A stretch of 64,000 nt of DNA from Cylindrotheca closterium (Eukaryota; Bacillariophyta; Bacillariophyceae; Bacillariales; Bacillariaceae): positions 16,001 to 80,000 of the forward strand of contig CAKOGP040000047.1 in the NCBI GenBank assembly GCA_933822405.4, written 5' to 3'. The position numbers and the translations under genes are program-made. Numbering within the stretch: position 1 is the first letter of the stretch; every line of letters starts with the position of its first letter. Below, piece after piece: positions 9,865 to 49,470 of the stretch. Under the pieces are notes generated by a model that was not told the DNA's origin, made no database searches, and worked only from the letters and a program-made list of their open reading frames with translations.

Positions 9865-10284
9865 GTGAGACTTACACAAGGTTGTTTCTCGTTTTTACCG
9901 GATTTAACTGATCAACAAATTGAAAAACAAATTAGTTACGCAATCTCAAAAGGTTGGGCAATGAATGTTGAGTGGACAGATGATCCACATCCACGTAACA
10001 ATTACTGGGAATTATGGGGTTTACCATTATTTGATATTAAAGATCCTGCATCTGTAATGTTCGAATTACAAGAAGCTCGTAAAGCTTGTGCAGCTGGTTA
10101 CATTCGTATGAATGCATTTGATGCAAGTTACGGTGTTGAAAGTTGTGTTATGTCATTTATTGTCAATCGTCCAGCTAATGAACCTGGTTTCTACTTAGAA
10201 CGTTCTGAAGGAAAAGGTCGTCAGATTAATTACACAATTAAATCATACAGTGTACAAGCTAATCCAGAGGGTGGTCGTTACTAA
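9865..10284 (+). CDS. rbcS: Rubisco small subunit, red-type
   Basis: Small subunit of form ID Rubisco; 139 aa starting MRLTQGCFSFLPDLTDQQIE. The start codon is GTG at 9865, behind the AAAGGAG at 9848-9854; no in-frame ATG fits. The C-terminal extension (EGKGRQINYTIKSYSVQ) is the red-type beta-hairpin that lines the central pore and is typical of diatom rbcS. 38 bases after rbcL. Confidence 0.98.
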   Translation: MRLTQGCFSFLPDLTDQQIEKQISYAISKGWAMNVEWTDDPHPRNNYWELWGLPLFDIKDPASVMFELQEARKACAAGYIRMNAFDASYGVESCVMSFIVNRPANEPGFYLERSEGKGRQINYTIKSYSVQANPEGGRY

Positions 10285-10576: not shown

Positions 10577-10858
10577 ATGTTTCAAATCTTTTCAAGTGCC
10601 GCTACCTATTTATTTCCTGGTGGTCGAGCATTAAAATTAGTAAAAGATGGAGTCAACATTACTAATTCGACGAATCCATTGGTACTTACGAAGAATATCA
10701 CATTAACTATAGTAGACTGCTGTGCTCTACCCCCAGTAAGATTAGCCTTTCATTGTGCCGGAGTAGTAGCAACAATTGGCGCCTCAATCGCGGCTCCTAA
10801 CCCTGTTACTATTGGTTCTGCGGTTCATTTAATGACTGAAATATACGAAAATTGCTAA
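10577..10858 (+). CDS. Small cysteine-containing hydrophobic protein, unknown
   Basis: 93 aa, start ATG preceded by AGGGGGT. After a GGRALKLVKDGV segment comes a hydrophobic half with cysteines in a VDCCALPP pattern, then FHCAG and a glycine/alanine-rich membrane-like stretch; a last Cys is at the C-terminus. The overall plan (GGR block, then a Cys-rich hydrophobic segment) resembles the 107-aa product at 17975-18298. Function unknown; a secreted or membrane peptide of the mobile element is possible. Ends at a hairpin shared with the convergent rep copy. Confidence 0.5.
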   Translation: MFQIFSSAATYLFPGGRALKLVKDGVNITNSTNPLVLTKNITLTIVDCCALPPVRLAFHCAGVVATIGASIAAPNPVTIGSAVHLMTEIYENC

Positions 10859-10867
10859 TTGATTAAA

Positions 10868-10887
10868 ATAGTGTATAATTACACTAT
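10868..10887. terminator. Palindromic hairpin between the 93-aa ORF and rep copy A
   Basis: ATAGTGTA and TACACTAT pair around TAAT, followed by T-runs. It sits between two convergent genes and probably ends both transcripts. Confidence 0.5.
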
Positions 10888-11799
10888 TTTTTTATATCCA
10901 ATTTATCTAAACAAAAAGGAGTTATTGTACCATCTTCATTATCTTTTCTAAATTTAATAGAGTAATCTGAATTTATATAAAGACGTAACCATCTATCCGC
11001 TGATAATTTTGAAATATGTTCATCTAATTTCTCATTGGTAACTACTAAAATTAATGGAGACTCAAATATAGCCTCAACATACTTACCGTACATTGTATCT
11101 ACTATAAAGGCCATTCTTTATATCTTCAATAGCCGCAAACATATCTTCTAATGATTGATTTTGACCTTTTGTTTTTGTCAAATTGATCATTAACAAGTCA
11201 ACTTCTTGTTCTCGAGTTAGCTTTGTAACAGCTGATCTAAGCCTCTCAACACTACTAACTGGTAATTTTATATCTCTTTGGCCGAGACGAAGACATTTTT
11301 GAAACCGACTCTTCCCAGTACAACCTTTATTATCTTCAACCCATATAATTTTACGATCACGGATAATTGGATTATTTTTATTTACTAAAATAAATTCAAA
11401 GAGTTCTTTTTGCCATTGTCTTAAATTCATAGTGGTGTATTCTTCACTATAATTTTCTTTTTGACCCACATAAAACGGTCCTTTTACCCTACTCTCTATT
11501 TTTGACGCATATTTCATAGCTGCCTTTGAATCATAAGTTTTACTTAATGTTAGACCACTAACATTACTAAATATTTCTTGAAATCGTTCTAGCAATTGTT
11601 TTTTTGAAAGACGTGGCCCTACCAAGGTGAAAGCACCTTGGTAGTGTTCTTTATTTTTCATACTACCACATTCCAGTTGAAAAACACAGATTTCTGTAAT
11701 ATTATTTAAAAAATTTTTTAACTTGACTTCGTTTGGTAATTTTTTCTGAGTCACTGTTGTTCCCCAAGTAAAAGACCAATACTTTGTATTTTTGTGCAT
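10884..11799 (-). pseudogene. CRESS-type Rep, type 1, copy A (frameshifted)
   Basis: Rolling-circle replication initiator with an HUH endonuclease domain and an SF3 helicase domain. From the ATG at 11799: motif I FTWG, motif II KEHYQG, motif III with the presumed catalytic Tyr (KYASK, then ESRVKGP), Walker A GCTGKS and Walker B LLMINLTKTKG. Compared with the near-identical copy B, it has one extra base near 11108. This breaks the frame just after Walker B; the C-terminal part (Walker C, VTNEKL) continues in a second frame to 10884. It also lacks three residues (IAC) after LGQRDI. Unusual for a plastid; no capsid gene is visible nearby. I infer a plasmid or virus-derived replicon. Confidence 0.85.
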
Positions 11800-11825
11800 T
11801 TTTTTCCTTTTGATAATTCGGGGGT

Positions 11826-11851
11826 AAGGGGGTTCTTTGGAGCGCTTCGCT
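11826..11851. other. Partial origin-like element beside rep A
   Basis: Carries the right arm AAGGGGGTTC (11826-11835) and the apical palindrome AGCGCTTCGCT (11841-11851) also found beside rep B and rep D. The opposite arm is missing: sequence identity with the rep B locus stops right after the apical CGCTGT. Probably one half of a rolling-circle origin. Confidence 0.5.
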
Positions 11852-11918
11852 GTTGCTTTAACATATTTTTGTATATAATATACAGTAAATCAATTTTACC
11901 AGTTACTATCCAACAAGT

Positions 11919-13019
11919 ATGTTATATATAAGAATAAGTTCAAATCGTATTTTTTTCGTTAGCGAATATTGGATCCTTTTTCCATTGATAGTATCAATTG
12001 AAATTGCTATTATAGTAAGGATAAGAAAAAATCGTGCCCAACAAGACCTTAAATCAAAAAAATTAAAAAAAGATTTTGTGCGTTGGAAAATATTTAATGT
12101 TGCAATTGAAAATATTTTTAACAGCATATACATAAGGGGGGGCCACGAAACAACCATAATTGATGACTTTGTACATGTTAGTCACGAAAATTGTCTCGTT
12201 CCTCAAGGCGTTCAGTTTTTGGATAATGAGTGGCTGCGCAAGCTACTTTTAGCTCGCTATTCTGATAAAGTAAAAAACGGTATTCTTTATATTACTCGAA
12301 CGGCTCTCTGCCACTTCGCTTCAGAAGTCGGTTTAGGGATCTTGGACAATAAAGTCATTCAAATTTCAGACGTGTTACTGGGTGGAAAAAAAACTTTTGC
12401 AGCAATACTTACATCATTACCAATACCATTACTAGGAATATGGGGAAGAACAACTATACCTGTTGTTTTGAGTTTAGTTACATTTTTATCTGGGGCTAGT
12501 TCTATGTTTTTCTTACGCGAGTCTAGCTTTTTACTTATTAAGACACAAGTTATTGCTGGTCCTATTAGTCATATAGTACAGCGTATACAGGATCGTAAAG
12601 ATGTTGTAGTCATCGATTTACAACCTAGTAATGATAAAGTAAGCATGCGGAAATCCTCAGTGCCATATGAATGTTCACTCCCGGATCAAAGGATTGGAAA
12701 TCCAATATGTGTTCGAGAAGCTGAAATTAACATTAAATCAGGAGATGTCGTAGTCGACATGCCTATTGATTACGACGAAGTTGTTAATATGGAAGATGTC
12801 ACAGGTTTAAGTGGTGAGATAAAATTTTCTGATCAGTTTGAAACTCTAACAATTGAAAACCCAGGTCCTAAAAACTCACAACACAGTAGGATTAACCCTA
12901 ATAAAAGTAGGAAAAGAATTACTAATTTATTAGAAAAATTTGGCGACCCTGACCATATACCAGATAGTGAAACATGGGACATTTCACGAAATACTGAACA
13001 CAATAATCGAAATAAATAA
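11919..13019 (+). CDS. Membrane protein of the mobile element (366 aa), unknown
   Basis: Intact 366-aa frame diverging from rep copy A across the origin-like site. It has an N-terminal membrane segment (about residues 15-35), a basic region (KSKKLKKDFVRWK), a central hydrophobic block of two or more spans (about 155-205, with IPLLGIWGRTTIPVVLSL), and a long polar, acidic C-terminal tail ending in KSRKRI and a DPD-rich region. The plan resembles the 331-aa ORF at 16149. I recognise no family. The ambisense rep/ORF layout around an origin is that of CRESS-type circles, where the second gene is often structural, but no capsid-like feature is seen. Confidence 0.7.
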   Translation: MLYIRISSNRIFFVSEYWILFPLIVSIEIAIIVRIRKNRAQQDLKSKKLKKDFVRWKIFNVAIENIFNSIYIRGGHETTIIDDFVHVSHENCLVPQGVQFLDNEWLRKLLLARYSDKVKNGILYITRTALCHFASEVGLGILDNKVIQISDVLLGGKKTFAAILTSLPIPLLGIWGRTTIPVVLSLVTFLSGASSMFFLRESSFLLIKTQVIAGPISHIVQRIQDRKDVVVIDLQPSNDKVSMRKSSVPYECSLPDQRIGNPICVREAEINIKSGDVVVDMPIDYDEVVNMEDVTGLSGEIKFSDQFETLTIENPGPKNSQHSRINPNKSRKRITNLLEKFGDPDHIPDSETWDISRNTEHNNRNK

Positions 13020-13038
13020 TTGTAGAATTTGTTCTTTT

Positions 13039-13073
13039 TAACTTAAATCAAATCACAGATTTGATTCAAGTTA
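13039..13073. terminator. Hairpin between the 366-aa ORF and rep B
   Basis: TAACTTAAATCAAATC pairs with GATTTGATTCAAGTTA (one mismatch) around a 3-base loop, between two convergent genes. Confidence 0.55.
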
Positions 13074-13081
13074 AATTTATA

Positions 13082-14005
13082 CTATTTTTTTATATTCAGT
13101 TTATCCAAACTAAGAGGAGTTACTGTACCATCCCCATTATCTTTTCTAAATTCAATAGAATAATCATAATTTATATGAAAACGTAACCATCTGTCAGCTG
13201 ATAATTTTGAAATATGTTCATCTAATTTCTCATTTGTAAATACTAAAATTAATGGAGACTCAAATATAGCCTCAATATACTTACCGTACATTGTATCTAC
13301 TATAAAACCATCCTTTATATCTTCAATAGCCGCAAACATATCTTCTAATGATTGATTTTGACCTTTTGTTTTTGTCAAATTGATCATTAACAAGTCAACT
13401 TCTTGTTCTCGAGTTAGCTTTGTAACAGCCGATATAAGCCTCTCAACACTACTAACTGGTAATTTACATGCTATGATATCCCTTTGACCGAGACGAAGCC
13501 ATTTTTGAAACCGACTCTTCCCAGTACAACCTTTATTATCTTCAACCCATATAATTTTACGCTCACGGATAATTGAATTATTTTTATTTACTAAAATAAA
13601 TTCAAAGAGTTCTTTTTGCCATTGTCTTAGATTCATAGTGGCGTATTCTTCACTATAATTTTCTTTTTGACCCACATAAAACGGTCCTTTTACTCTACTC
13701 TCTATTTTTGACGCATATTTCATAGCTGCCTTTGAATCATAAGTTTTACTTAACGTTAGACCACTAACATTACTAAATATTTCTTGAAATCGTTCTAACA
13801 ATTGTTTTTTTGAAAGACGTGGCCCTACCAAGGTGAAAGCACCCTGGTAGTGTTCTTTATTTTTTATACTACCACATTCCAGTTGAAAAACACAGATTTC
13901 TGTAATATTATTTAAAAAATTTTTTAACTTGACTTCGTTTGGTAATTTTTTCTGAATCACTGTTGTTCCCCAAGTAAAAGACCAATACTTTGTGTTTTTG
14001 TGCAT
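13082..14005 (-). CDS. CRESS-type Rep, type 1, copy B (intact)
   Basis: Full-length rolling-circle Rep of 307 aa. I start at the ATG at 14005 (MHKNTKYWSFTWG) because AAAAGGA lies just upstream and copies A and D begin the same way; the open frame extends 48 codons further only through the origin. Endonuclease motifs: FTWG (I), HYQG (II), KYASK with the catalytic Tyr (III). Then ESRVKGPFYVG, Walker A DNKGCTGKS, Walker B LLMINLTKTKG, Walker C LVFTNE and the conserved ADRWLR. It probably nicks the adjacent origin cruciform and unwinds DNA. The most complete initiator in the window. CRESS-type Reps are known from single-stranded DNA viruses and from bacterial, phytoplasma and red-algal plasmids. 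Confidence 0.85.
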   Translation of the reverse strand: MHKNTKYWSFTWGTTVIQKKLPNEVKLKNFLNNITEICVFQLECGSIKNKEHYQGAFTLVGPRLSKKQLLERFQEIFSNVSGLTLSKTYDSKAAMKYASKIESRVKGPFYVGQKENYSEEYATMNLRQWQKELFEFILVNKNNSIIRERKIIWVEDNKGCTGKSRFQKWLRLGQRDIIACKLPVSSVERLISAVTKLTREQEVDLLMINLTKTKGQNQSLEDMFAAIEDIKDGFIVDTMYGKYIEAIFESPLILVFTNEKLDEHISKLSADRWLRFHINYDYSIEFRKDNGDGTVTPLSLDKLNIKK

Positions 14006-14031
14006 TTTTTTCCTTTTGACAATTCGGAGGA

Positions 14032-14078
14032 AAGGGGGTTCTTTGGAGCGCTTCGCTGTCGTTCCGTCGAACCCCCTT
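14032..14078. other. Origin-like cruciform beside rep B
   Basis: Perfect 10-bp arms AAGGGGGTTC (14032-14041) and GAACCCCCTT (14069-14078) enclose a 27-base loop carrying a second palindrome AGCGCTTCGCT (14047-14057). GC-rich in an AT-rich genome and 26 bases upstream of the rep B start. The apical palindrome with the flanking T-G-T is shared with reps A and D. I infer the double-strand origin for type-1 Rep; the nick site is not identified. Confidence 0.6.
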
Positions 14079-14101
14079 ACCCCTTTTTTTATTAATGTGA
14101 G

Positions 14102-14401
14102 TTGGGTTGTAGAATTGATCATAGACAGTTGCAGCGTAAGTTTAAGCACGCTTCTGACTTCAACGTGCTGGGAAACTATAACAAAGAAAATTGTTTACTG
14201 TTTAGAGACAAAATTATAGCTCATATGAAAAATCCTAATACAAAATTAATAGATGGTACATTTAAAGATAAAGAGGTCATTATGTATTTCAATGAAGGAA
14301 CTCGTTTGAACGTAATATTAGACATTGAAGGTAACTTTGTTAGTGGTTGGAAATTATCTAAAGATCAAGTTATAAATGTACGAGATAGAGAAGCTTTATA
14401 A
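14102..14401 (+). CDS. Colicin-D-type tRNase toxin domain
   Basis: About 99 aa matching the C-terminal catalytic domain of colicin D and related polymorphic toxins, which cut the anticodon loop of arginine tRNAs. Visible landmarks: QRKFKHA with the catalytic-type K-x-K-H cluster, the GNYNKEN turn, the TxLNVI-like strand, and NFVSGWKL with the S-G-W motif that is functionally important in colicin D. No ATG is available: the frame opens at a stop two codons upstream and begins with TTG. It therefore looks like the toxic domain alone, without secretion or receptor domains. Its stop shares one base with the immunity gene. A homologous, broken copy lies at 34.9-35.2 kb. Family assignment is by motif recognition. 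Confidence 0.75.
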   Translation: MGCRIDHRQLQRKFKHASDFNVLGNYNKENCLLFRDKIIAHMKNPNTKLIDGTFKDKEVIMYFNEGTRLNVILDIEGNFVSGWKLSKDQVINVRDREAL

Positions 14402-14763
14402 TGAACAATTTAGAAGAAAATCGTATGCTATTGTTGGAAGATTTCAATTTTTGGTCCAATTGTTTTAAGTATGTCGAGTTGATGAAAGAGTTGAAAAATG
14501 GTATTATAAGTATTGAAGAGTTTCATGATCAATTTTGCTACATGTGGAGACTGGATCGTGATAAGGTTAGTCAGTGGTCTGACTTAAAAGCCTTTGAGGT
14601 AGATCGCTTTAAAGGTTTTTCATCTTTGATGTCAAAATTATTCTCAGATTGTGACGCCTTCGAACCTGATCCACTATTAAAAGATAGTTTTAGCATATCT
14701 GGTGAAGAGCTACAAGATTCTATTTTTTATACCTTATCGGAAATTGAAACTCGTTATCTGTAA
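14401..14763 (+). CDS. Colicin-D-type immunity protein
   Basis: Predicted inhibitor that binds and masks the toxin's tRNA-binding face. 120 aa, acidic, with the family pattern LKNGIISIEEFHDQFCYMWR near residue 40 and a later DCDAFEPDPLL followed by ISGEELQDSIFYTLSEIE. This resembles the bacterial self-protective colicin-like immunity family. Starts at TAATG overlapping the toxin stop, the usual toxin-immunity order. Intact, unlike the second copy at 34.6-34.9 kb. Confidence 0.75.
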   Translation: MNNLEENRMLLLEDFNFWSNCFKYVELMKELKNGIISIEEFHDQFCYMWRLDRDKVSQWSDLKAFEVDRFKGFSSLMSKLFSDCDAFEPDPLLKDSFSISGEELQDSIFYTLSEIETRYL

Positions 14764-14825
14764 TATCGTTGTCTTAATTTTGGTCAAAAACTCCCAAACT
14801 TTCAATAGTATATATATTAAAAGAA

Positions 14826-14868
14826 ATAGGTTGATGGATTTACTAGCCGAAGGCTACTATTAACCTAT
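14826..14868. other. Origin-like cruciform upstream of rep C (type 2)
   Basis: Arms ATAGGTTgAT and ATtAACCTAT enclose an apical palindrome AGCCGAAGGCT (14845-14855). Nearly the same 43 bases lie upstream of rep F at 36575-36617. The apical sequence differs from that beside type-1 reps, so origin and Rep type go together. Inferred rolling-circle origin. The rest of 14764-14959 is AT-rich apart from the palindrome at 14893. Confidence 0.6.
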
Positions 14869-14892
14869 AAAAATTTCCTACTCTCTGAATTC

Positions 14893-14920
14893 CGAGTAAA
14901 ATCCTATAGGATTTTACTCG
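14893..14920. repeat. Perfect 28-bp palindrome before rep C
   Basis: CGAGTAAAATCCTA is followed directly by its exact complement. It lies between the origin-like cruciform and the rep C start, so it could be an operator, a terminator for the upstream immunity gene, or a single-strand origin. Not seen upstream of rep F. Confidence 0.55.
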
Positions 14921-14959
14921 CTAAAAGCCAAAAATATTATAATAACTGTTTATTAAAGA

Positions 14960-15837
14960 ATGATACATAGTTTACAAAAACATTAGGTATTCACGTGAAA
15001 CGCCGATTCAAGCGATCGAATTATCGATGTTAACAAATTAAGGGAGCTATTAAATGAGATAGCGAAAGAAGGGGGGTGTTCCAAAAAGAACGGGGCGAAA
15101 AAACTGGTCGTATTCATTATCAAGGTAGGTTTGATTTAAAAGGGCCGCGTATTGGGAAACGTAAGCTCCTGACGATGTTCGAAAAATTAGGTGATACAAA
15201 AAACTTGACATTGAGCCCTGAGAGGTTATATGATTCAACAAGTTATTGTGTTAAAGTCGAATCGCGGGTCGAAGGACCGTGGTTCGTCGGCACACCTCAA
15301 TACAGAAGAAAAAACACTCCGATCAGCCTATCCCTACGCAAATGGCATAAACAGCTCTTAAATGAGCTAAATTCACCCTTAGGTGAAACATTCAGGGACC
15401 GTAAGGTCATCTGGATACAAGATGAAAAAGGTTCGGCAGGAAAATCTACTTTCTTGAAGTATTTATGCTCACAGAAAGAAGGTCTCAATTTTAAGAAACT
15501 GCCATTAGATCGACCAGACCGAATCAGAATGATGGTTTGCAAGATGACCCAGAAAGAAGATGTTGATGCATTCTGCTTCGACTTCACGAGAACACTGGAT
15601 GAGAATACAAGTGTCCGAAGCATGTTCCAAGTCTTGGAAGAAATTAAGAATGGGCACATCGTTTCAGCGATGTTTGGTGCCCCAATGAAGTCTATCATAC
15701 CAAACCCCTTTGTAATTATTTTTACAAACGAGGATGTGTCTAGGTATTATCACTACTTGTCAAAAGACCGATGGCAAGCATACGCGATAATTCAGAATGA
15801 ATTATTAGCGATTACGAAGATTAATTTTTACAAATGA
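14960..15837 (+). pseudogene. CRESS-type Rep, type 2, copy C (stops and frameshift near the start)
   Basis: Aligns with rep F from its start (MIHSLQK). Two tryptophan codons of the motif I region are stops here: TAG at 14984 and TGA at 14996. A frameshift follows at the G6 run 15071-15076. Beyond it the frame is open for 253 codons: motif II IHYQG, motif III YCVKVESRVEGPW, Walker A GSAGKST, Walker B AFCFDFTRT, Walker C VIIFTNED, then LSKDRWQAYA. The C-terminus is fused to a piece of type-1 Rep. Helicase and nuclease core look sound, so decay began at the N-terminus unless the frameshift and stops are bypassed. GC content looks higher than in plastid genes. Confidence 0.8.
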
Positions 15838-17974: not shown

Positions 17975-18298
17975 CTAACCAAACGTTTTAGATATAAGAA
18001 TGCCACAGGCCACACACATAGACGCACTGGCACATGTACCAGCTATAGGTATACACGAAACACATACAACTGTAGTGGCTGCAACCATCGAAGGCTTACT
18101 TTTTACAAACTTTAACCCGGTATTCAATACTTCCTTAGCTGCAAGACGACCTCCTTCTGAAGATACGACTTGTCCAGCCGCGTCAACAGGATCAATCGCA
18201 GAGGCTGAAGGCGTCATCAGACTAAATGTTAAAGCGGCCACACCCACTTTACCAAGATGATTTAGAAAGCGTTTTTTTTTAGCTTGTTTTTCAGTCAT
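17975..18298 (-). CDS. Small secreted-type cysteine-rich protein, unknown
   Basis: 107 aa with a convincing export signal: basic KQAKKKRFLNH, hydrophobic core, and an ASA cleavage motif near residue 34. The mature part has a GGRLAAKEVL segment, a KPSMVAATTVV stretch, and a cysteine cluster (C-x2-C-x6-C-x5-C-x2-C) in a hydrophobic C-terminus. Resembles the 93-aa product at 10577 in plan. It could act in the thylakoid lumen or membrane. No family recognised; a bacteriocin-like or element maintenance peptide are guesses only. No homologue of a core plastid gene. Confidence 0.55.
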   Translation of the reverse strand: MTEKQAKKKRFLNHLGKVGVAALTFSLMTPSASAIDPVDAAGQVVSSEGGRLAAKEVLNTGLKFVKSKPSMVAATTVVCVSCIPIAGTCASASMCVACGILISKTFG

Positions 18299-18437: not shown

Positions 18438-19853
18438 TTAATCAATCGGACGCATCGATAAAACAGGCTCATTAGCACGATTAATACCTTTTTCGAAACC
18501 AGCAGCAGCCGCACGAGAACGACCTGAATGCCACCAGTGACCAATTAAAAAGAAAAATGCTAAAAAGAAATGTGAACAACATAACCATGAACGTGGTGAT
18601 ACGTAATTAACAGAGTTGATTTCTGTCGCTACTCCACCAACTGAGTTCAGTGAACCTAATGGAGCATGAGTCATATATTCTGCTGCACGACGTTCTTGCC
18701 ATGGTTGAATATCATTTTTAATTTTATTGATATCTAAACCATTTGGACCACGTAATGGTTCAACCCATGGTGCACGTAAATCCCAGAATCGCATTGTTTC
18801 ACCACCAAAAATAATTTCACCACTCGGAGACCGCATTAGATATTTACCTAAACCAGTTGGACCTTGCGCTGATGAAACATTAGCACCTAAACGTTGATCA
18901 CGTACTAAGAATGTAAAGGCTTGAGATTGTGAAGCTTCAGGACCTGTTGGACCGTATAACTCACTTGGGTAAGCTGTATTATTATACCAAGAATATAATG
19001 ATGCCGTCCAACCCATAAGCGAAATTGCTGCTAAACTGTAAGAAAGATATGCTTCACCAGACCATACAAAAGCACGACGTGCCCAAGCAAATGGTTTTGT
19101 GAAAATATGCCAAATTCCACCGGTAATACATAAAACACCTACCCAAATATGGCCACCAATTACATCTTCCATATTATTTACTGAAACTACCCAACCATCT
19201 CCACCAAATGGAGAACGGAATACATAGCCAAAAATAACGATTGGATTTAAAGTTGGTGTCGTAATATAACGAACATCTCCGCCACCTGGTGCCCATGTAT
19301 CATAGATACCACCTAGATACATTGCTTTGAAAACTAATAAAAAAGCACCACAACCTAAAAGACATAAATGAATACCTAAGATTGTTGTCATTTTATTCTT
19401 ATCACGCCAATCATATCCAAAAAATGGAAACGATTCTTCTAACGTATCTGGACCTAACAATGAGTGATAAATACCTCCAAAACCTAAAACTGCTGAAGAA
19501 ATTAAGTGAAGTACACCTACAGCAAAATAAGGAACAGTACTAACAATTTCACCACCTGGACCAATTCCATAACCTAATGTAGCTAAATGTTGCATGCAGA
19601 TAAAACCTTGTTCATACAAAGGTTTTTCTGGAACAAAATGAGATACTTCAAATAAAATCATTGCACCAGCCCAAAATACCATTAAACCAGCATGGGCTAC
19701 GTGTGCACCTAATAATTTACCTGAAACATTAATTAAACGAGCATTTCCACTCCACCAAGCGAACCCAGTAGATTCGATATCACGGCCTGCTATACTACTA
19801 TTAAAGGGCGTTTCCACGTGGTAATACCTCCTCAGGGAATACAAAGTTTTCAT
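18438..19853 (-). CDS. psbC: Photosystem II CP43 antenna protein
   Basis: Chlorophyll-binding core antenna that also supplies a ligand to the Mn cluster. 471 aa from [15 protein letters not shown]; the frame is open ten codons further up but the family starts here. Six membrane spans with conserved histidines and the large lumenal loop containing [14 protein letters not shown]. The start lies inside psbD (53-base overlap), the conserved plastid psbD-psbC arrangement. Confidence 0.97.
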
Positions 19854-21267: not shown

Positions 21268-21411
21268 ATGTTAATTATGGACACCTTATTATTATCTCGT
21301 TTACCAGAATCATATGTTATTTTTAGCCCCATTATAGATGTATTACCAGTGATTCCTGTTTTCTTCTTATTATTAGCATTTGTTTGGCAGGCAGCTATTG
21401 GATTTAGATAA
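21268..21411 (+). CDS. psbK: Photosystem II subunit K
   Basis: 47-aa precursor ending in the conserved [20 protein letters not shown] and FR; the N-terminal part is removed in the mature protein. A second in-frame ATG three codons later (21277) could also be the start. Single membrane span. Confidence 0.94.
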
Positions 21412-21499
21412 TTTAAAAATTATAATCAACCCTAGTCAGTATATAATTATAATTAAACGTTTTTACGTTTTATTATTCAAATTTAATCAAAATATAAAA

Positions 21500-21613
21500 A
21501 TGGTAGAACCGTTATTATCTGGAATAGTTTTAGGCATGATTACTGTATCGGCATTTGGTCTTTTCGTTGCAGCTTTTTTACAATATCGACGTGGTAATCA
21601 ATTTGAAGTTTAA
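21500..21613 (+). CDS. petG: Cytochrome b6f subunit V (PetG)
   Basis: 37 aa, starts [20 protein letters not shown], one membrane span and the end YRRGNQFEV. Required for b6f assembly. The longer open frame upstream (from 21380) has no family support, so the ATG at 21500 is used. Confidence 0.96.
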
Positions 21614-21699
21614 ACGTATAAATCCTATAAATTTAGATTTATAGGATTTACAAATAATTTTTATAACTTATCATAAAATAAAAAACGTAGAAAATTATA

Positions 21700-30960: not shown

Positions 30961-31205
30961 GTGAGTGGTGATTTATTCGTAAAAGGGTTCATGTTACTTG
31001 CTATTAGTTCTATACTATCGAAATATCGAAATCGTAAATCTCGATGTCGAAATTATAAAACACCAACTCAATTTAAAAATACTAATGACGAACATTTTGA
31101 GCCGGACTCGAATGGTATATTCAAAAAAAGAAGATTTCAAAATAAATTCTGCTATGCTAAGTAGTTCGGAATTTCGGGGAATTGTAATTCAATAACAATA
31201 GATTT

Positions 31206-31458
31206 TATTTCAGAGAAAGTCGATAGAGCACATGAAGTCTACTCATCCTTGCTTAGTTAAGTATAGAAAAATGAAGTATATGATTATTTTAATCCAGATA
31301 CAAAATTAAATGTAATGGTTAATCTAAAAAGTAATAAGTTTGTAAGAAGGGGAACAACTAGAAAACATGATCCGAGAAGGTTGTTTGTAATGAAAGAGAT
31401 AAATAAATTAGAGCTGAAATGTAACATCACATTATCATCATTGGTAAAACCTAAGTGA
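31206..31458 (+). pseudogene. Possible scrap of a colicin-D-like toxin domain
   Basis: A frame with stops near its start (TAA, TAG) encodes YFNPDTKLNVMV, reminiscent of the strand that precedes the S-G-W motif in the toxin domain at 14102, but then diverges (NKFVRRGTT) and lacks S-G-W. Similarity is short and may mean a related nuclease toxin or chance. The rest of 30961-31851 holds only AT-rich frames without support. Confidence 0.3.
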
Positions 31459-31851
31459 TTACACTAAATTATTAAAAGAATTTTTAAATAAATAAATAAG
31501 TAATATGGAATTTGAAACAAGATTTTATGAGATAAGGGACTTAAAATCTCAATAATTCTCTGTACAATTAAATCATTACCTGTCTCAATAAAATTGATTA
31601 CTATTTCAATCTGTAGAGAATCCATTTCAAAGTTAAAATTCTTAACTTTTATACCAGTTTTGAAAGTAAAAAGAAGAACTATATTAATTAAATTTTCACT
31701 TTTCTTAACATTAAGAACATTCAAAGTTTTTTTTAACATAAATTTTTATACTAATAGTCTTGAAAATTTAATAAAAAAGTTGTATGGTATTACCATACTA
31801 CTTTTTTTAGTTGCAACTCTAATTGAGTAATATTATTACTCTTTAAGGGTA

Positions 31852-32467
31852 CTAGGACTCCCAATACGATAGCTCAGCACTAAGTGAGCTATGATTAACT
31901 ATTTTATATATACATAGTCTAGATTTGTTTATAAAACAAGGAGTAATACCTTCAGAAATATTCACAGGCCACTCTTGAAGATTTTTGTCCGAGTCAATTA
32001 CTAATCTAACCAATCTATCTTTAAATAAATAATTTAAATAATTAGAGATTCGTTCATTTGTGAAAACTATCATTAGTAGCGGATCAAAAATAGCTTCTAT
32101 GTATTTACCATACATTACATTCACACAATAACCATCAACAATTCCTTCTATCGCTGAAAATAAATCTTTAAATGATTGCTTTTCTCCTTGAATTATTGTT
32201 AAATTTATCATAAATAAGTCGATTTTTGTTTCACCGGTGATTTTACTAACAGCTGAAATTAAACGTTCTGTTGAACTAAGAGGTCATTTACGAGAAATAA
32301 GTTCTTTTTGCCCCATTCTTAACCATTTTAAGAGAAAGTTAAACCTGAAACGTTTTTAAAATAATCCTCAAATAATTTTAACAAACTAATCTTAGACTGT
32401 CTCGTCCCAGTAAAAGTGAAGCCCACTTGATAGTGAAGTTTTTTCGCTTTGTTACCACATTCTAACT
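31852..32467 (-). pseudogene. CRESS-type Rep, type 1-like, copy E (internal deletion)
   Basis: Reads from QLECGNKAKKLHYQ (motif II region) through a TGTRQSK segment to NVSGLT, then jumps directly to LLKWLRMGQKEL, so motif III and Walker A are deleted. A TGA (Arg/Leu position) follows near 32285. From 32211 the frame is open again: Walker B FMINLTIIQGEKQ, then MYGKYIEAIF and Walker C IVFTNERI. More diverged than A/B, hence an older integration. Its 5' end abuts the pentapeptide gene at a recombination junction. Confidence 0.75.
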
Positions 32468-32880
32468 GATTATCGTTGCATTGAAATTAATACCATGTAA
32501 TTCTGTACCGAAGAATTGACAATTTTCAAGATCACTCCATTTAAGCTTTGTGTTACTAAATCGACAATTATTAAAAGTATGATCATCAAATTCTACTCTT
32601 GAAATATCACAATCTACTATTTCACAATTTTGAAAAGTATATTTCCAAAACTTACATTTCCGTAATAGGCTATTATGAGAATTACAATTTTTAAAAAAAC
32701 AATCATGAAAATGATCACCCAAAAATTCTGTTTCTCCAAATTTAAAATTAGAGATAGTTACTTGATCAAGAATAGCTACAGAAAGTACACAGCCAAAAAT
32801 ACTTTCGTTTAAAACCTGTTGATTTTTAAAGGTTTAACGTTTTGATATTTTTCGATAAGGCTCATTAATTTAATCTGCAT
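32462..32880 (-). pseudogene. Pentapeptide-repeat protein, frameshifted; possible immunity gene
   Basis: Repeating five-residue pattern of a right-handed beta-helix (CEIVDCDISRVEF, FNNCRFSNTKL, WSDLENCQFFG). The frame from 32722 is open; its upstream part starts at the ATG at 32880, behind AGGAG, and is out of frame because of one missing A in the A-run near 32838. The 3' end is truncated where Rep sequence begins at 32467. Pentapeptide proteins are rare in plastids; some serve as immunity or DNA-mimic proteins in bacteria. It lies 21 bases downstream of a toxin-like pseudogene, the position of an immunity gene. Confidence 0.6.
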
Positions 32881-32901: not shown

Positions 32902-33663
32902 TTAATTTTTTGTTTCTTCATTTAAAAAGACAATATGTTTTGAATGTCCGATTGAATTTATTAGATTTTCTTTGTACTCTAACTCTACCCTTTCATTATT
33001 CATTAGGACTTAATTCCCTTAGATCTACAAGATGTAAAGGAGTTTTTCCAAGACTTCCATGCATGACCTTTGTTTTACTATCTTTTTACCCATCCTTTTT
33101 GTTGTTTATTCCCTTTGCCCCAATTTATTGGAATTTTAACGTCAGCTACATCATAAGGACCAAGTAAAAATCTGCATCAACCTCATTTGATTCAGGCCGA
33201 ACCGCATTATTTATATACCCTTGTCCTTCACCTTCTAAAATACCTAATGCTTCATCTATAGACCCGCCATACCATTTTTCTTCTCCATGCACAATTCTTT
33301 AAACTGTTTCTCCGAACACTTCACATTTGGATTTTTTGTTAACAAAAACTTTTGGCATTCTTCGTTAATATCAATAAACGATTCCGTTCGCCCTCTTCTC
33401 CGACCTACTGATTCAGTATTAAATCGTTGAGAAGAAAATTTGTCTACTTTTGGTTTTCCAAAAAGCAAATTATGAGCTGATTCAATATGTGGAGATCGTA
33501 CTACCGGTTCAACTGGCTGAAAACAAACAGTTTGGTATTTCAACATATATAGCAGACTAAGGAGAAATGCAACATCACTCAATCGACTACCAGCTCTGAC
33601 ATTTTTTATTAATGATTCAGAGTGATATGAAACATAATGTACAGACTCTTCGACCTTATTCAT
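32902..33663 (-). pseudogene. Polymorphic-toxin-like gene, broken by frameshifts
   Basis: The 135-codon frame from 33663 to 33256 has a hydrophobic segment (DVAFLLSLLYMLKY) and a polar domain. Coding resemblance continues downstream in other frames to 32902, with phrases such as IDEALGILEGEGQGY, RPESNEVD, VADVKIPINWG and HIVFLNEETKN that are typical of C-terminal nuclease domains of bacterial polymorphic toxins. At least two or three frame changes separate them. Exact toxin family not identified. Followed by the pentapeptide gene. Confidence 0.45.
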
Positions 33664-34613: not shown

Positions 34614-34898
34614 TCAATGAGGAAAAAGGTTGAAAGTGTTAAAAAAAATCCGACGATAGCCGAAGGGTCCCGCTAAATTATAGCTTGTAAAATAAGCATA
34701 TAAAAATAAAACGCTGAAAAGCCAACAGACGGGTGGCTGGCAAAGGTTTAATCTCCACATGTAGCAAAATTGGTCATGAAACTCTTCAATACTTATAATA
34801 CCATTTTTTAACCCTTTCATCAACTCGATATAATCAAAACGATTGGACCAAAAATTGAAGTCTTCTAACAATAACATATTTTCTTCTAAATTATTCAT
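34614..34898 (-). pseudogene. Colicin-D-type immunity gene, copy 2 (truncated)
   Basis: The first 51 codons match the intact immunity protein at 14401 almost residue for residue, through FHDQFCYMWRL. At about 34743 the similarity stops and an unrelated hydrophobic tail follows, so the C-terminal half including the acidic DPDPLL-type region is lost. A recombination junction. Confidence 0.7.
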
Positions 34899-34930
34899 TA
34901 TAAAGCTGCTCTATCTCGCACATTTATAGC

Positions 34931-35197
34931 TTAATCTTTCGCTAATTTCCAACCACTAACGAAGTTACCTGTAGTGTCTAATATTACGTTCAAACTAGTT
35001 TCTTCATTGAAATACATAGTTACCTCTTGAGGTTTAAACGTGCCATTTATTAATTTTGTATTAAGATTTTTCATATGATCTACAATCTTGTCTCTAAACA
35101 GTAAACCATTTTCTTTACTATAATTTCCCAGCACGTCGAAGTCGGAAGCATGCTTAAACTTACGCTGAAACTGTTTAGGATCAATCCTACAACCCAA
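34931..35197 (-). pseudogene. Colicin-D-type toxin domain, copy 2 (nonsense mutation)
   Basis: Close homologue of the domain at 14102: QRKFKHA, GNYSKEN and NFVSGWKLA are all present. A CAA codon near the C-terminus has become TAA (34931), removing the last 11 or so residues, which are still readable down to the overlap with the immunity start at 34898. Begins with the same TTG context GAGTTGGGTTGTAG as copy 1, but here the frame stays open about 22 codons further upstream (GPNDIIEYIKYIREL), showing that the domain was once part of a longer protein. Confidence 0.7.
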
Positions 35198-35588: not shown

Positions 35589-35631
35589 CTCTAAAATGAT
35601 GATCGTATAAATCAATATACGCTAGCTCATT
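35589..35631. repeat. 43-bp direct repeat, left copy
   Basis: Identical by eye to 37670-37712 (begins CTCTAAAATGATGATCG). It lies in the old C-terminal coding frame of rep F. Spacing between copies is 2081 bases. Confidence 0.85.
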
Positions 35632-36470
35632 ATTACTGTGACATATTGTGAATGACTCCCAACGAGGGATAAATAGTCACAAAACTTGCTTATATCTTCA
35701 TTAGTAAATATCAGCACAATCGACGGTTTTAAAAAAGCCCGATTAAAGTTTCCATACATTATATCGACTATAAAAGAATTCTTTAATTCTTCAATCACCT
35801 CAAAAAGATCATTTAATCTTGTATCATCACCTCGTGTTCTTGTAAAATCGAACATATAAACGTCAACATTTTTTCTTTTAGATAATTTTATAACGGCTGA
35901 CCTTACTCGATTAGGTCTATCAATCGGCAATTTCTCAATTCCTATACCTAAAGTTTTTTCATTTGCAGCCAAATATCGAATAAAAGTAGATTTATCTTGA
36001 CCCCCTACCATATCCTCTATCCACACCACTTTTCTGTTTCGAAAATAATTCTGGTACCGACCAGTAATCAGACCCAGTAACTGACTTTGCCATTTTTTTA
36101 ATTCCAGCTTCATCTCTTCTTTTTCCGACAAATAATCTGCTAAACCCGCATACCACGGACCCGCAATACGAGTATCCAATTTTTCACAGTAACTCGAACT
36201 ATCGTAAGCGAGTTCAACTTGAAGAGTCAAGTTTTCCGTTGAAAATATTTCACTGAATATCTTTAGCAAAGCTTTTTTACTTTTCCGACTTAATAATTTT
36301 AAACGACCTTGGTAATGCCTACGATTCGTAGTTTCACCAACCTCGAGCTGAAAAACAGCTTCAGATGCAATATTATTCAGTTTATCCTGAACAGATTTAG
36401 GTGATGGTAATTTGTCGTCTTTATCAGCATTCCAGGTAAAGACCCAACGCTTCTGCAAACTATGTATCAT
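35622..36470 (-). CDS. CRESS-type Rep, type 2, copy F (C-terminus shifted)
   Basis: 282 aa from the ATG at 36470 (MIHSLQKRWVFTWNADK); the open frame extends further up but copy C starts at the same place. Motif I FTWN, motif II RHYQG, motif III YCEKLDTRIAGPW with the catalytic Tyr, Walker A GGQDKST (note Q-D in place of the usual small residues), Walker B VYMFDFTRT, Walker C LIFTNED. Near 35662 about four bases are missing relative to the fragment at 37617-37806, so the last residues are out of frame; the original frame runs on to 35536. The catalytic core is complete, so activity cannot be excluded. Confidence 0.8.
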   Translation of the reverse strand: MIHSLQKRWVFTWNADKDDKLPSPKSVQDKLNNIASEAVFQLEVGETTNRRHYQGRLKLLSRKSKKALLKIFSEIFSTENLTLQVELAYDSSSYCEKLDTRIAGPWYAGLADYLSEKEEMKLELKKWQSQLLGLITGRYQNYFRNRKVVWIEDMVGGQDKSTFIRYLAANEKTLGIGIEKLPIDRPNRVRSAVIKLSKRKNVDVYMFDFTRTRGDDTRLNDLFEVIEELKNSFIVDIMYGNFNRAFLKPSIVLIFTNEDISKFCDYLSLVGSHSQYVTVIMS

Positions 36471-36574
36471 TGTAAGTTTTCTTAATCTTAAACAATAGAG
36501 AAATCTGCTGAAATCTGAATAGATTTCAACAGATCTAAAAATCCTGACAGATTTTAACAAATTCAAAAAATTTA

Positions 36575-36617
36575 ATAGGTTAGTAGTAGCCTTCGGCTAG
36601 TAAATCCACTAACCTAT
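36575..36617. other. Origin-like cruciform upstream of rep F
   Basis: Perfect 10-bp arms ATAGGTTAGT and ACTAACCTAT enclose the apical palindrome AGCCTTCGGCT (36588-36598). About 105 bases upstream of rep F. Almost identical to 14826-14868 beside rep C. Inferred rolling-circle origin of type-2 replicons. Confidence 0.65.
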
Positions 36618-36701
36618 TCTCTCCTATACATTATATAGAAAGTCTGGGAGTTTTGGGAGTTTTTTAACTCATAAGCTTCTATGACGTGCTATAATAGCTT
36701 C

Positions 36702-49352: not shown

Positions 49353-49382
49353 ACAAAGAGAAGAAAATTTTTTATAATTAAA

Positions 49383-49451
49383 GCATGTAGCTCAGTGGAT
49401 AGAGCATCAGATTCCGATTCTGAATGTCAAGGGTTCGATTCCCTTCATGCT
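49383..49451 (+). tRNA. trnR(ccg): tRNA-Arg (CCG)
   Basis: Acceptor GCATGTA/TTCATGC with one T-T mismatch, anticodon loop TTCCGAT (CCG), T-loop TTCGATT. An arginine tRNA, the class of molecule cut by colicin-D-type toxins. Confidence 0.88.
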
Positions 49452-49470
49452 TACATATTAAGTACGAATT

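What the first reader, a model, noticed from the sequence alone, without database searches (positions are those of the whole stretch)
14102..14763. Colicin-D-type tRNase toxin and immunity gene pair inside a plastid genome
The frame at 14102 carries the K-F-K-H cluster and the S-G-W motif of the colicin D catalytic domain. It is followed, with a one-base stop/start overlap, by a 120-aa protein with the pattern of the matching immunity family. Such modules are known from bacterial contact-dependent and bacteriocin systems; I know of none in plastids. The target class, arginine tRNA, exists in the plastid (trnR at 49383). On a replicon this could be an addiction module: loss of the element would leave cells or plastids without immunity. 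The lack of an ATG and of any delivery domain fits an intracellular toxin.
Basis: partly seen in the sequence, partly recalled or inferred. Interest (0 to 1): 0.95.

Follow-up and report, generated by a model that had tools for sequence, protein, structure and literature searches.

The report
Bacterial tRNase toxin–immunity pair in plastid
A toxin domain that in bacteria cuts transfer RNAs sits next to its protective partner inside an algal chloroplast genome, apparently carried there by small plasmids, although this copy of the toxin seems to have lost its normal beginning and may be silent.

Summary
Observation confirmed. Frame 14102-14401 is a Colicin_D tRNase domain (Pfam E 2e-20; model pLDDT 95; best PDB match colicin D, TM 0.89). 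Frame 14401-14763 is a Colicin_immun protein (Pfam E 4e-6; 98% profile-profile match to proteins encoded beside bacterial colicin-D domains). They share a one-base stop/start overlap, as do 4 of 15 bacterial loci examined. The contig is a red-lineage plastid, probably a diatom's. The pair lies among elements with circovirus-like Rep genes. Three further, decayed toxin copies exist in this plastid assembly, and close relatives occur in other datasets. The plastid toxins form one clade (98/99), outside the supported clade of Serratia/Erwinia colicin-D-like domains. New here: the window copy begins abruptly at a junction with the hairpin of a Rep element. It has no ATG, so its expression is doubtful. 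The immunity gene is intact and more strongly conserved between copies 1 and 2 (dN/dS 0.09 over 51 codons, against 0.43 for the toxin). Best reading: a bacterial toxin-immunity cassette became cargo of plastid plasmids, and the window holds a toxin-truncated, immunity-intact relic. A live addiction module is possible but not shown.

The parts
14102..14401 (+). toxin copy 1: colicin-D-type tRNase domain, 99 codons, TTG as first possible start, first in-frame ATG only at residue 42; begins at a junction, probably 5'-truncated
   Evidence: Pfam PF11429 E 2.2e-20; PDB colicin D E 7e-13; model pLDDT 95 and fold match; homology to copy 2 starts at about 14098
14401..14763 (+). immunity copy 1: 120 aa, Colicin_immun family, intact with ATG
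   Evidence: Pfam PF09204 E 4.2e-6; hhalign 98% to bacterial immunity proteins; six other 120-aa relatives of 71-97% identity among nine found
14020..14098 (-). hairpin region upstream of the Rep1 gene; abuts the toxin's 5' end
   Evidence: folds with z -2.5; 79% match over 66 bp to C70:19193-19258, which precedes a Rep start there
13082..14005 (-). Rep1, circovirus-like Rep protein (307 aa)
   Evidence: profile of 16 Reps matches circovirus Rep domain structures 6h8o and 2hwt at E 6e-5 and 7e-5; 97 relatives found
11083..11799 (-). Rep2, tandem copy of Rep1 (DNA 95% over 984 bp), its frame broken near the end
11919..13019 (+). ORF366, flanked by the two Rep copies; probable plasmid cargo of unknown function
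   Evidence: no Pfam match at E<=1
14787..14876 (+). hairpin repeat downstream of immunity copy 1, shared with 36567-36654; possible replication origin (inferred)
   Evidence: 82% identity, same orientation relative to the toxin; z -1.9 and -3.7
15076..15837 (+). Rep3, 43% identical to Rep5; lies after toxin, immunity and repeat
   Evidence: tree
34901..35197 (-). toxin copy 2, 78% identical to copy 1, one in-frame TAA at codon 89
34614..34898 (-). immunity copy 2: matches residues 1-52 of copy 1 with one residue missing (homologous part 34746-34898), then unrelated: truncated
35622..36470 (-). Rep5, upstream of toxin copy 2 on the same strand; its P-loop reads DKS instead of GKS
36567..36654 (-). 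hairpin repeat upstream of Rep5, relative of 14787-14876
31120..31335 (+). toxin copy 3, decayed (profile E 7e-7)
31448..31621 (+). immunity copy 3, decayed (profile E 2.4e-5)
49381..49454 (+). tRNA-Arg(CCG), a possible target by analogy with colicin D; ACG and UCU isoacceptors lie elsewhere in this plastid assembly

Best explanation
A colicin-D-type tRNase domain with its immunity gene, of bacterial origin, became cargo of small circular Rep plasmids that live in, and integrate into, the plastids of (probably) pennate diatoms. On such a plasmid the toxin would cut a plastid tRNA in the anticodon loop and the immunity protein would block it, so that plastids losing the plasmid, or rival plasmids without immunity, would be harmed. 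The copy in the window is a relic of one such integration: the immunity gene is intact, the toxin domain keeps the catalytic histidine and its conserved neighbours, but it begins at a junction with another Rep element, so it has probably lost its 5' part and is silent or made only weakly from a non-ATG codon. Shown: families, toxin fold, linkage, plastid location, several copies, the junction, stronger constraint on immunity than on toxin between copies 1 and 2. Inferred: truncation, plasmid carriage, tRNA cleavage in the plastid, addiction, silence of this copy.
For: Families and fold. Columns K13, K15, H16, S81, G82, W83 are the same in the 14 bacterial domains aligned and in copy 1; H16 aligns with the H of K-Y-K-H in colicin D chains, which I take to be His611. 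The pair is found as a pair in copies 1, 2 and 3. Elsewhere two toxin/immunity pairs of relatives give the same longest-contig length, 3063 (P0002/P0005) and 5128 (P0003/P0010, both short), which suggests but does not prove one contig each. Plastid toxins are one clade, 98/99. Four of 15 bacterial loci examined have the same one-base overlap. Circular-plasmid origin: on C70, Rep residues 55-280, a 144-aa ORF, a hairpin and Rep residues 1-58 follow each other between two stretches of toxin copy 4; copies 1 and 2 read tox-imm-repeat-Rep and repeat-Rep-tox-imm, each on one strand. Junction. Constraint: immunity 9 synonymous against 6 non-synonymous changes (Fisher 4e-5), toxin 12 against 22 (0.039); toxin columns that vary among plastid copies are the more variable ones in bacteria (one-sided P 0.007).
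Against: No transcript, protein or tRNA-cleavage data. No free plasmid contig was found: the Rep and toxin matches reported lie only on C7 and C70, counts being lower bounds. None of the three toxin relatives in the protein database includes the K-x-K-H part, so no plasmid-borne toxin with a start has been seen. Three columns invariant in the 14 bacterial domains differ in copy 1: G21N, Y54F, G97E. Rep3 and Rep5 share only 43%, far less than the toxins' 78%, and the tree does not pair them, so the two copies do not come from one recent plasmid. Toxin dN/dS interval reaches 1.07, and one stop is no fewer than chance would give (P 0.34). The immunity fold was not recovered. Three of nine immunity relatives are short.
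Confidence: 0.62

Rival explanations
1. Live addiction module: the 99-aa toxin is translated in this plastid from TTG 14102 and held in check by the immunity protein; loss of the region would kill the plastid.
For: Open 99-codon frame with the catalytic cluster; intact immunity with TAATG coupling; non-ATG starts seem to occur here (the rbcS frame at 9865 opens with GTG; gene name from recall); fewer amino-acid changes between copies 1 and 2 than a random null (P 0.023).
Against: Begins at a junction, no ATG; no promoter-like excess (7 sites against 4.9 expected in 13900-15100, none on the + strand upstream of the toxin); copies 2-4 decayed.
Confidence: 0.18
2. Immunity alone is kept: a shield against toxin made by circulating plasmids in the same plastid (anti-addiction), while toxin copies decay. 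It concerns the present role and can hold together with the best explanation.
For: Immunity dN/dS about 0.09 over 51 codons; six full-length 120-aa relatives align without an indel, while the three toxin relatives are all partial.
Against: Database bias: gene callers list intact frames and may start toxins late; the comparison is short; three of nine immunity relatives are short and immunity copies 2 and 3 are decayed; no circulating armed plasmid was seen.
Confidence: 0.3
3. Dead foreign DNA: both genes are unexpressed leftovers of a plasmid insertion. It too concerns the present role and can hold together with the plasmid-cargo origin.
For: Higher GC3 (0.26 and 0.33) than rbcL, rpoB and atpA (0.13-0.16); other copies decayed.
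Against: Leaves the strong constraint on immunity between copies to have acted before insertion.
Confidence: 0.3
4. Bacterial contamination or mis-assembly.
For: The families are otherwise bacterial in what I searched.
Against: Plastid genes flank on both sides; a second plastid contig holds another copy; G+C of both genes, 0.31 and 0.33, is near the window's 0.30; the plastid toxins form their own clade and are at most 51% identical to bacterial domains over the whole domain (59% in the best segment of the broken locus L052).
Confidence: 0.03

Closest known systems
Colicin D and its immunity protein ImmD (E. coli; PDB 1v74, 1tfo)
   Same: Same catalytic domain fold (TM 0.89), same K-x-K-H and S-G-W, immunity gene of the same Pfam family directly downstream
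   Different: No receptor-binding or translocation parts, plastid host, and it falls outside the supported clade of Serratia and Erwinia colicin-D-like domains
Colicin-D-family end domains of other bacterial proteins (loci L035-L039)
   Same: Highest identities in the alignment, 42-49%; one-base stop/start overlap in L036 and L037
   Different: There the domain ends long proteins, some with Rhs-like repeats (judged by eye, recall); here only the end domain remains. The tree link to them is weak (79/89)
Type II restriction-modification system in a katablepharid mitochondrion (PMC8099122; passages seen)
   Same: Bacterial toxin-antidote-like selfish element in an organelle, with reduced copies
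   Different: DNA-based, mitochondrial, and shown to be active; ours is an RNase-immunity pair in a plastid, untested
serC/tyrC plasmids of pennate diatoms and their plastid insertions (PMC8070900, PMC9235467; passages seen)
   Same: Plasmid DNA inserted in diatom or raphidophyte plastid genomes
   Different: The Haslea circles are 3.5-4.5 kb with a recombinase gene; here the replicons are Rep elements of about 1.7-2.2 kb (inferred), one kind with toxin cargo
Red algal plasmids with geminivirus-like replicase (PMC4814812; passages seen)
   Same: Virus-like Rep on algal plasmids, with homologues in organelle genomes
   Different: The words colicin, toxin and immunity do not occur in that paper's main text; a different algal group

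Membership tests
Colicin_D tRNase domain | sequence profile above curated cut-off | tested here: met
   73.2 bits against 25
Colicin_D tRNase domain | fold as in colicin D | tested here: met
   TM 0.89/0.85, rmsd 1.9 to 1tfo_A
Colicin_D tRNase domain | catalytic His (611) and neighbouring conserved residues | tested here: met
   H16, K13, K15, S81, W83 present; His611 from PMC9990079, roles of the others recalled; G21, Y54 and G97, invariant in 14 bacterial domains, are changed
Colicin_D tRNase domain | cleavage of tRNA-Arg between 38 and 39 | not testable with these tools
   tRNA-Arg genes exist; other family members cut elsewhere (PMC9990079)
Colicin_immun (ImmD family) | sequence profile above curated cut-off | tested here: met
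   27.7 bits against 22; 5 of the 6 full-length relatives also pass, P0006 misses with 20.2
Colicin_immun (ImmD family) | immunity fold | tested here: inconclusive
   model pLDDT 75, no PDB match at E<=0.001; profile match instead
Toxin-antidote (addiction) module | toxin gene with ordinary start and promoter | tested here: not met
   no ATG, begins at a junction; no promoter-like site upstream on its strand. A non-ATG start is not excluded
Toxin-antidote (addiction) module | immunity neutralises the toxin; loss is lethal | not testable with these tools
   needs experiment
Bacteriocin or contact-dependent effector | delivery domains upstream of the toxin domain | tested here: not met
   nothing upstream in copy 1; only short broken stretches in other copies
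CRESS-type Rep replicon (neighbouring elements) | HUH endonuclease motif H-x-Q, Y-x-x-K and P-loop helicase | tested here: met
   H52, Q54, Y97, K100, G159, K163, S164 invariant in 16 Reps; circovirus Rep domain E 6e-5. Against: Pfam gives one weak match each to Viral_Rep and Replitron_HUH among the 16, and NCBIfam a RadC match far below its cut-off (18.6 against 180 bits)

The most novel reading that the evidence does not exclude
Diatom plastids host a family of small circular Rep plasmids, some armed with a tRNase toxin and its immunity gene, which use plastid tRNA cleavage to enforce their own inheritance or to exclude rivals; the plastid chromosome collects their remains and keeps the immunity gene as protection. 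This would be, as far as my searches show, the first toxin-immunity plasmid system of a plastid.
Probability: 0.35. Interest if true: 0.9.

Novelty: new variant of a known kind. Interest (0 to 1): 0.7.

Why it matters
The katablepharid paper says that toxin-antitoxin selfish elements in organellar genomes had been predicted but not found before its mitochondrial restriction-modification case (PMC8099122, passage). A colicin-D pair on plastid replicons would extend this to plastids and to RNA-cutting toxins, would explain how parasitic plasmids persist in diatom plastids, and gives a concrete test of plasmid conflict within an organelle.

Tried and rejected
Contamination was considered and set aside. 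Red alga as host was considered first; a Rep relative named by nr as Cylindrotheca closterium (P0035, 89% over 70% of the query, 69% in the alignment) and an undivided clpC frame on C70 (clpC is split in chrysophytes and eustigmatophytes per PMC11528492) point to a diatom, but the species is unresolved. IMG/VR scans with the immunity protein, its alignment and Rep1 found no relative. PLSDB plasmids: 53 records match the toxin (E<=0.01), all at under 60% identity; none match the immunity protein or Rep1. The immunity fold search was uninformative. NCBIfam gave no match above a cut-off for six proteins, the toxin included. Counts: one search returned 18 loci from patterns of two stretches; 15 went into (L046, L047, L049 left out as similar Serratia loci) and 14 into alignment A3 (L052 also left out, broken frame). 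Of the 15, 13 have an open frame starting within 20 bases of the toxin's stop; L052's lies 54 bases beyond its broken frame and L040's 68 bases off. Those of L035 and L037 look, by eye, like another family. Only two downstream proteins (L036, L042) were scanned with Pfam; both are PF09204. The Rep tree does not place Rep3 and Rep5 as each other's closest relatives: with P0106 and a long-branched C70 Rep they lie on one side of a supported branch (96/100). The mixed immunity profile A4 finds the colicin D immunity protein at E 5e-17, but it contains bacterial rows, so I do not lean on it.

Full report
What is there. The first is a Colicin_D domain (E 2.2e-20), the second a Colicin_immun protein (E 4.2e-6). 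The toxin aligns with colicin D chains of the PDB along residues 4-88. A model built on 17 sequences has mean pLDDT 95; its five PDB matches at E<=0.001 are all colicin D, and the sixth (E 0.005) is a contact-dependent growth inhibition toxin. The immunity protein is more distant: no significant PDB sequence match by itself, an uninformative fold search, but a 98% profile-profile match to an alignment of 11 proteins encoded next to bacterial colicin-D domains.

Where it is. The window holds plastid genes such as atpA, sufB, sufC, rbcL, rbcS, psbC, psbD and rpoB, named here from recall of their sequences, with tRNAs and a tmRNA. The contig is C7 of an assembly of 47.6 Mb in 572 contigs. C70 of the same assembly also carries plastid genes such as psbA, ribosomal protein genes and clpC (names from recall). 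A Rep relative is named Cylindrotheca closterium in nr, so a pennate diatom is likely, not proven.

The elements. Two gene-poor islands (about 10.3-18.3 kb and 30.9-37.9 kb) hold Rep genes, hairpins and unknown ORFs. Sixteen Reps keep H-x-Q, Y-x-x-K and P-loop positions and their profile matches the circovirus Rep domain at E 6e-5. Rep1 has 97 relatives in the protein database, many with longest contigs of 1.1-2.8 kb. Rep1 and Rep2 (95% over 984 bp) flank ORF366 2.2 kb apart, as a circle inserted beside a resident copy would leave. On C70, Rep residues 55-280, a 144-aa ORF, a hairpin and Rep residues 1-58 follow each other between two stretches of a fourth toxin copy: most simply a permuted circle of about 1.7 kb inserted in a toxin gene. 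In the window, copy 1 reads toxin, immunity, repeat, Rep3, and copy 2 reads repeat, Rep5, toxin, immunity, each on one strand, as two cuts of one circular order would. Against the simplest form of this, Rep3 and Rep5 are only 43% identical and are not sisters in the tree.

Four copies, four states. Copy 1: toxin domain open, immunity intact. Copy 2: one stop in the toxin, immunity cut after residue 52. Copy 3: both decayed, still detectable (E 7e-7 and 2.4e-5). Copy 4 (C70): toxin in two stretches, with an ATG and a short immunity-like start after it by eye, which the profile did not detect. Alignment of copies 1 and 2 shows homology beginning abruptly at about 14098; the bases before it in copy 1 are the hairpin that precedes the neighbouring Rep gene. 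In copies 2 and 4 the frame stays open upstream of the domain, and bacterial relatives are ends of longer frames, so I infer that copy 1 is truncated. The likeness of upstream parts of copies 3 and 4 is weak.

Selection. Between copies 1 and 2 the immunity gene shows 9 synonymous and 6 non-synonymous changes over 51 codons (dN/dS 0.09), the toxin 12 and 22 over 98 codons (0.43; bootstrap 0.20-1.07). A random-change null gives P 0.023 for the toxin's amino-acid changes and 0 of 5000 for immunity; the single stop in the toxin is not fewer than chance (P 0.34). Columns variable among the four plastid toxins are more variable in bacteria (P 0.007). K13, K15, H16, S81, G82 and W83 are kept; G21, Y54 and G97, invariant in 14 bacterial domains, are N, F and E in copy 1. 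The toxin was thus under some constraint in the past; when this ended cannot be told.

Origin. A pattern scan of a collection of 84,980 prokaryote species returned 18 loci. The plastid toxins are one clade (98/99) outside the supported clade of seven Serratia and Erwinia domains (100/99); their link to the other domains is weak (79/89). The bacterial donor is unknown. The one-base overlap occurs in L036, L037, L041 and L045, 4 of 15 examined.

How it most likely works. By analogy with colicin D (tRNA-Arg cut between 38 and 39; His611 as general base; PMC9990079 passages), the domain would cut plastid tRNA and the immunity protein would cover it. Three plastid tRNA-Arg genes (ACG, CCG, UCU) were found. 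Family members with other cut sites exist, so the arginine target is open. On a plasmid the pair would enforce inheritance; in the window, the junction makes the toxin probably silent.

Literature. Searches for colicin D with plastid (5 papers), toxin-antitoxin with red alga, plasmid and plastid (6), colicin with chloroplast genome and immunity protein (0), diatom with plastid genome and toxin-antitoxin (2), polymorphic toxin with chloroplast genome (0) showed, by title and start of abstract, no such plastid report. The library is open-licence PMC only. Papers seen in passages: PMC4814812, PMC9235467 (with outline), PMC8099122, PMC9990079, PMC11528492, PMC8070900.

Verdict. Observation confirmed; family reading right; plastid setting real and unreported in what I could search; the live-addiction reading is not shown and is weakened by the junction. 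Interest 0.7.

Noticed in passing
window 32465-32782 minus: Remnant of a pentapeptide-repeat protein in the second island (Pentapeptide_4 E 1e-12); a 135-aa frame upstream of it (33256-33663) has no Pfam match at E<=1.
   Followed up: partly
L024/L025 (G000:C70:18997-20674): Circularly permuted Rep element of about 1.7 kb between two stretches of a decayed toxin copy: sequence evidence that these replicons are circular.
   Followed up: partly
window 10577-10858, 17975-18298; C70:19412-19846, 21277-21675: Small hydrophobic, cysteine-containing ORFs near Rep genes; the first three have no Pfam match above a cut-off, the fourth was not tested. Possible alternative plasmid cargoes.
   Followed up: no
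window 19223-19409: Rfam IsrR antisense RNA match (E 6e-37) lying opposite a psbC-like reading frame; probably reflects isiA/psbC sequence similarity, but not tested.
   Followed up: no
window 10879-14059: Rep1 and Rep2 are 95% identical over 984 bp and flank ORF366, like a single-crossover plasmid insertion.
   Followed up: partly
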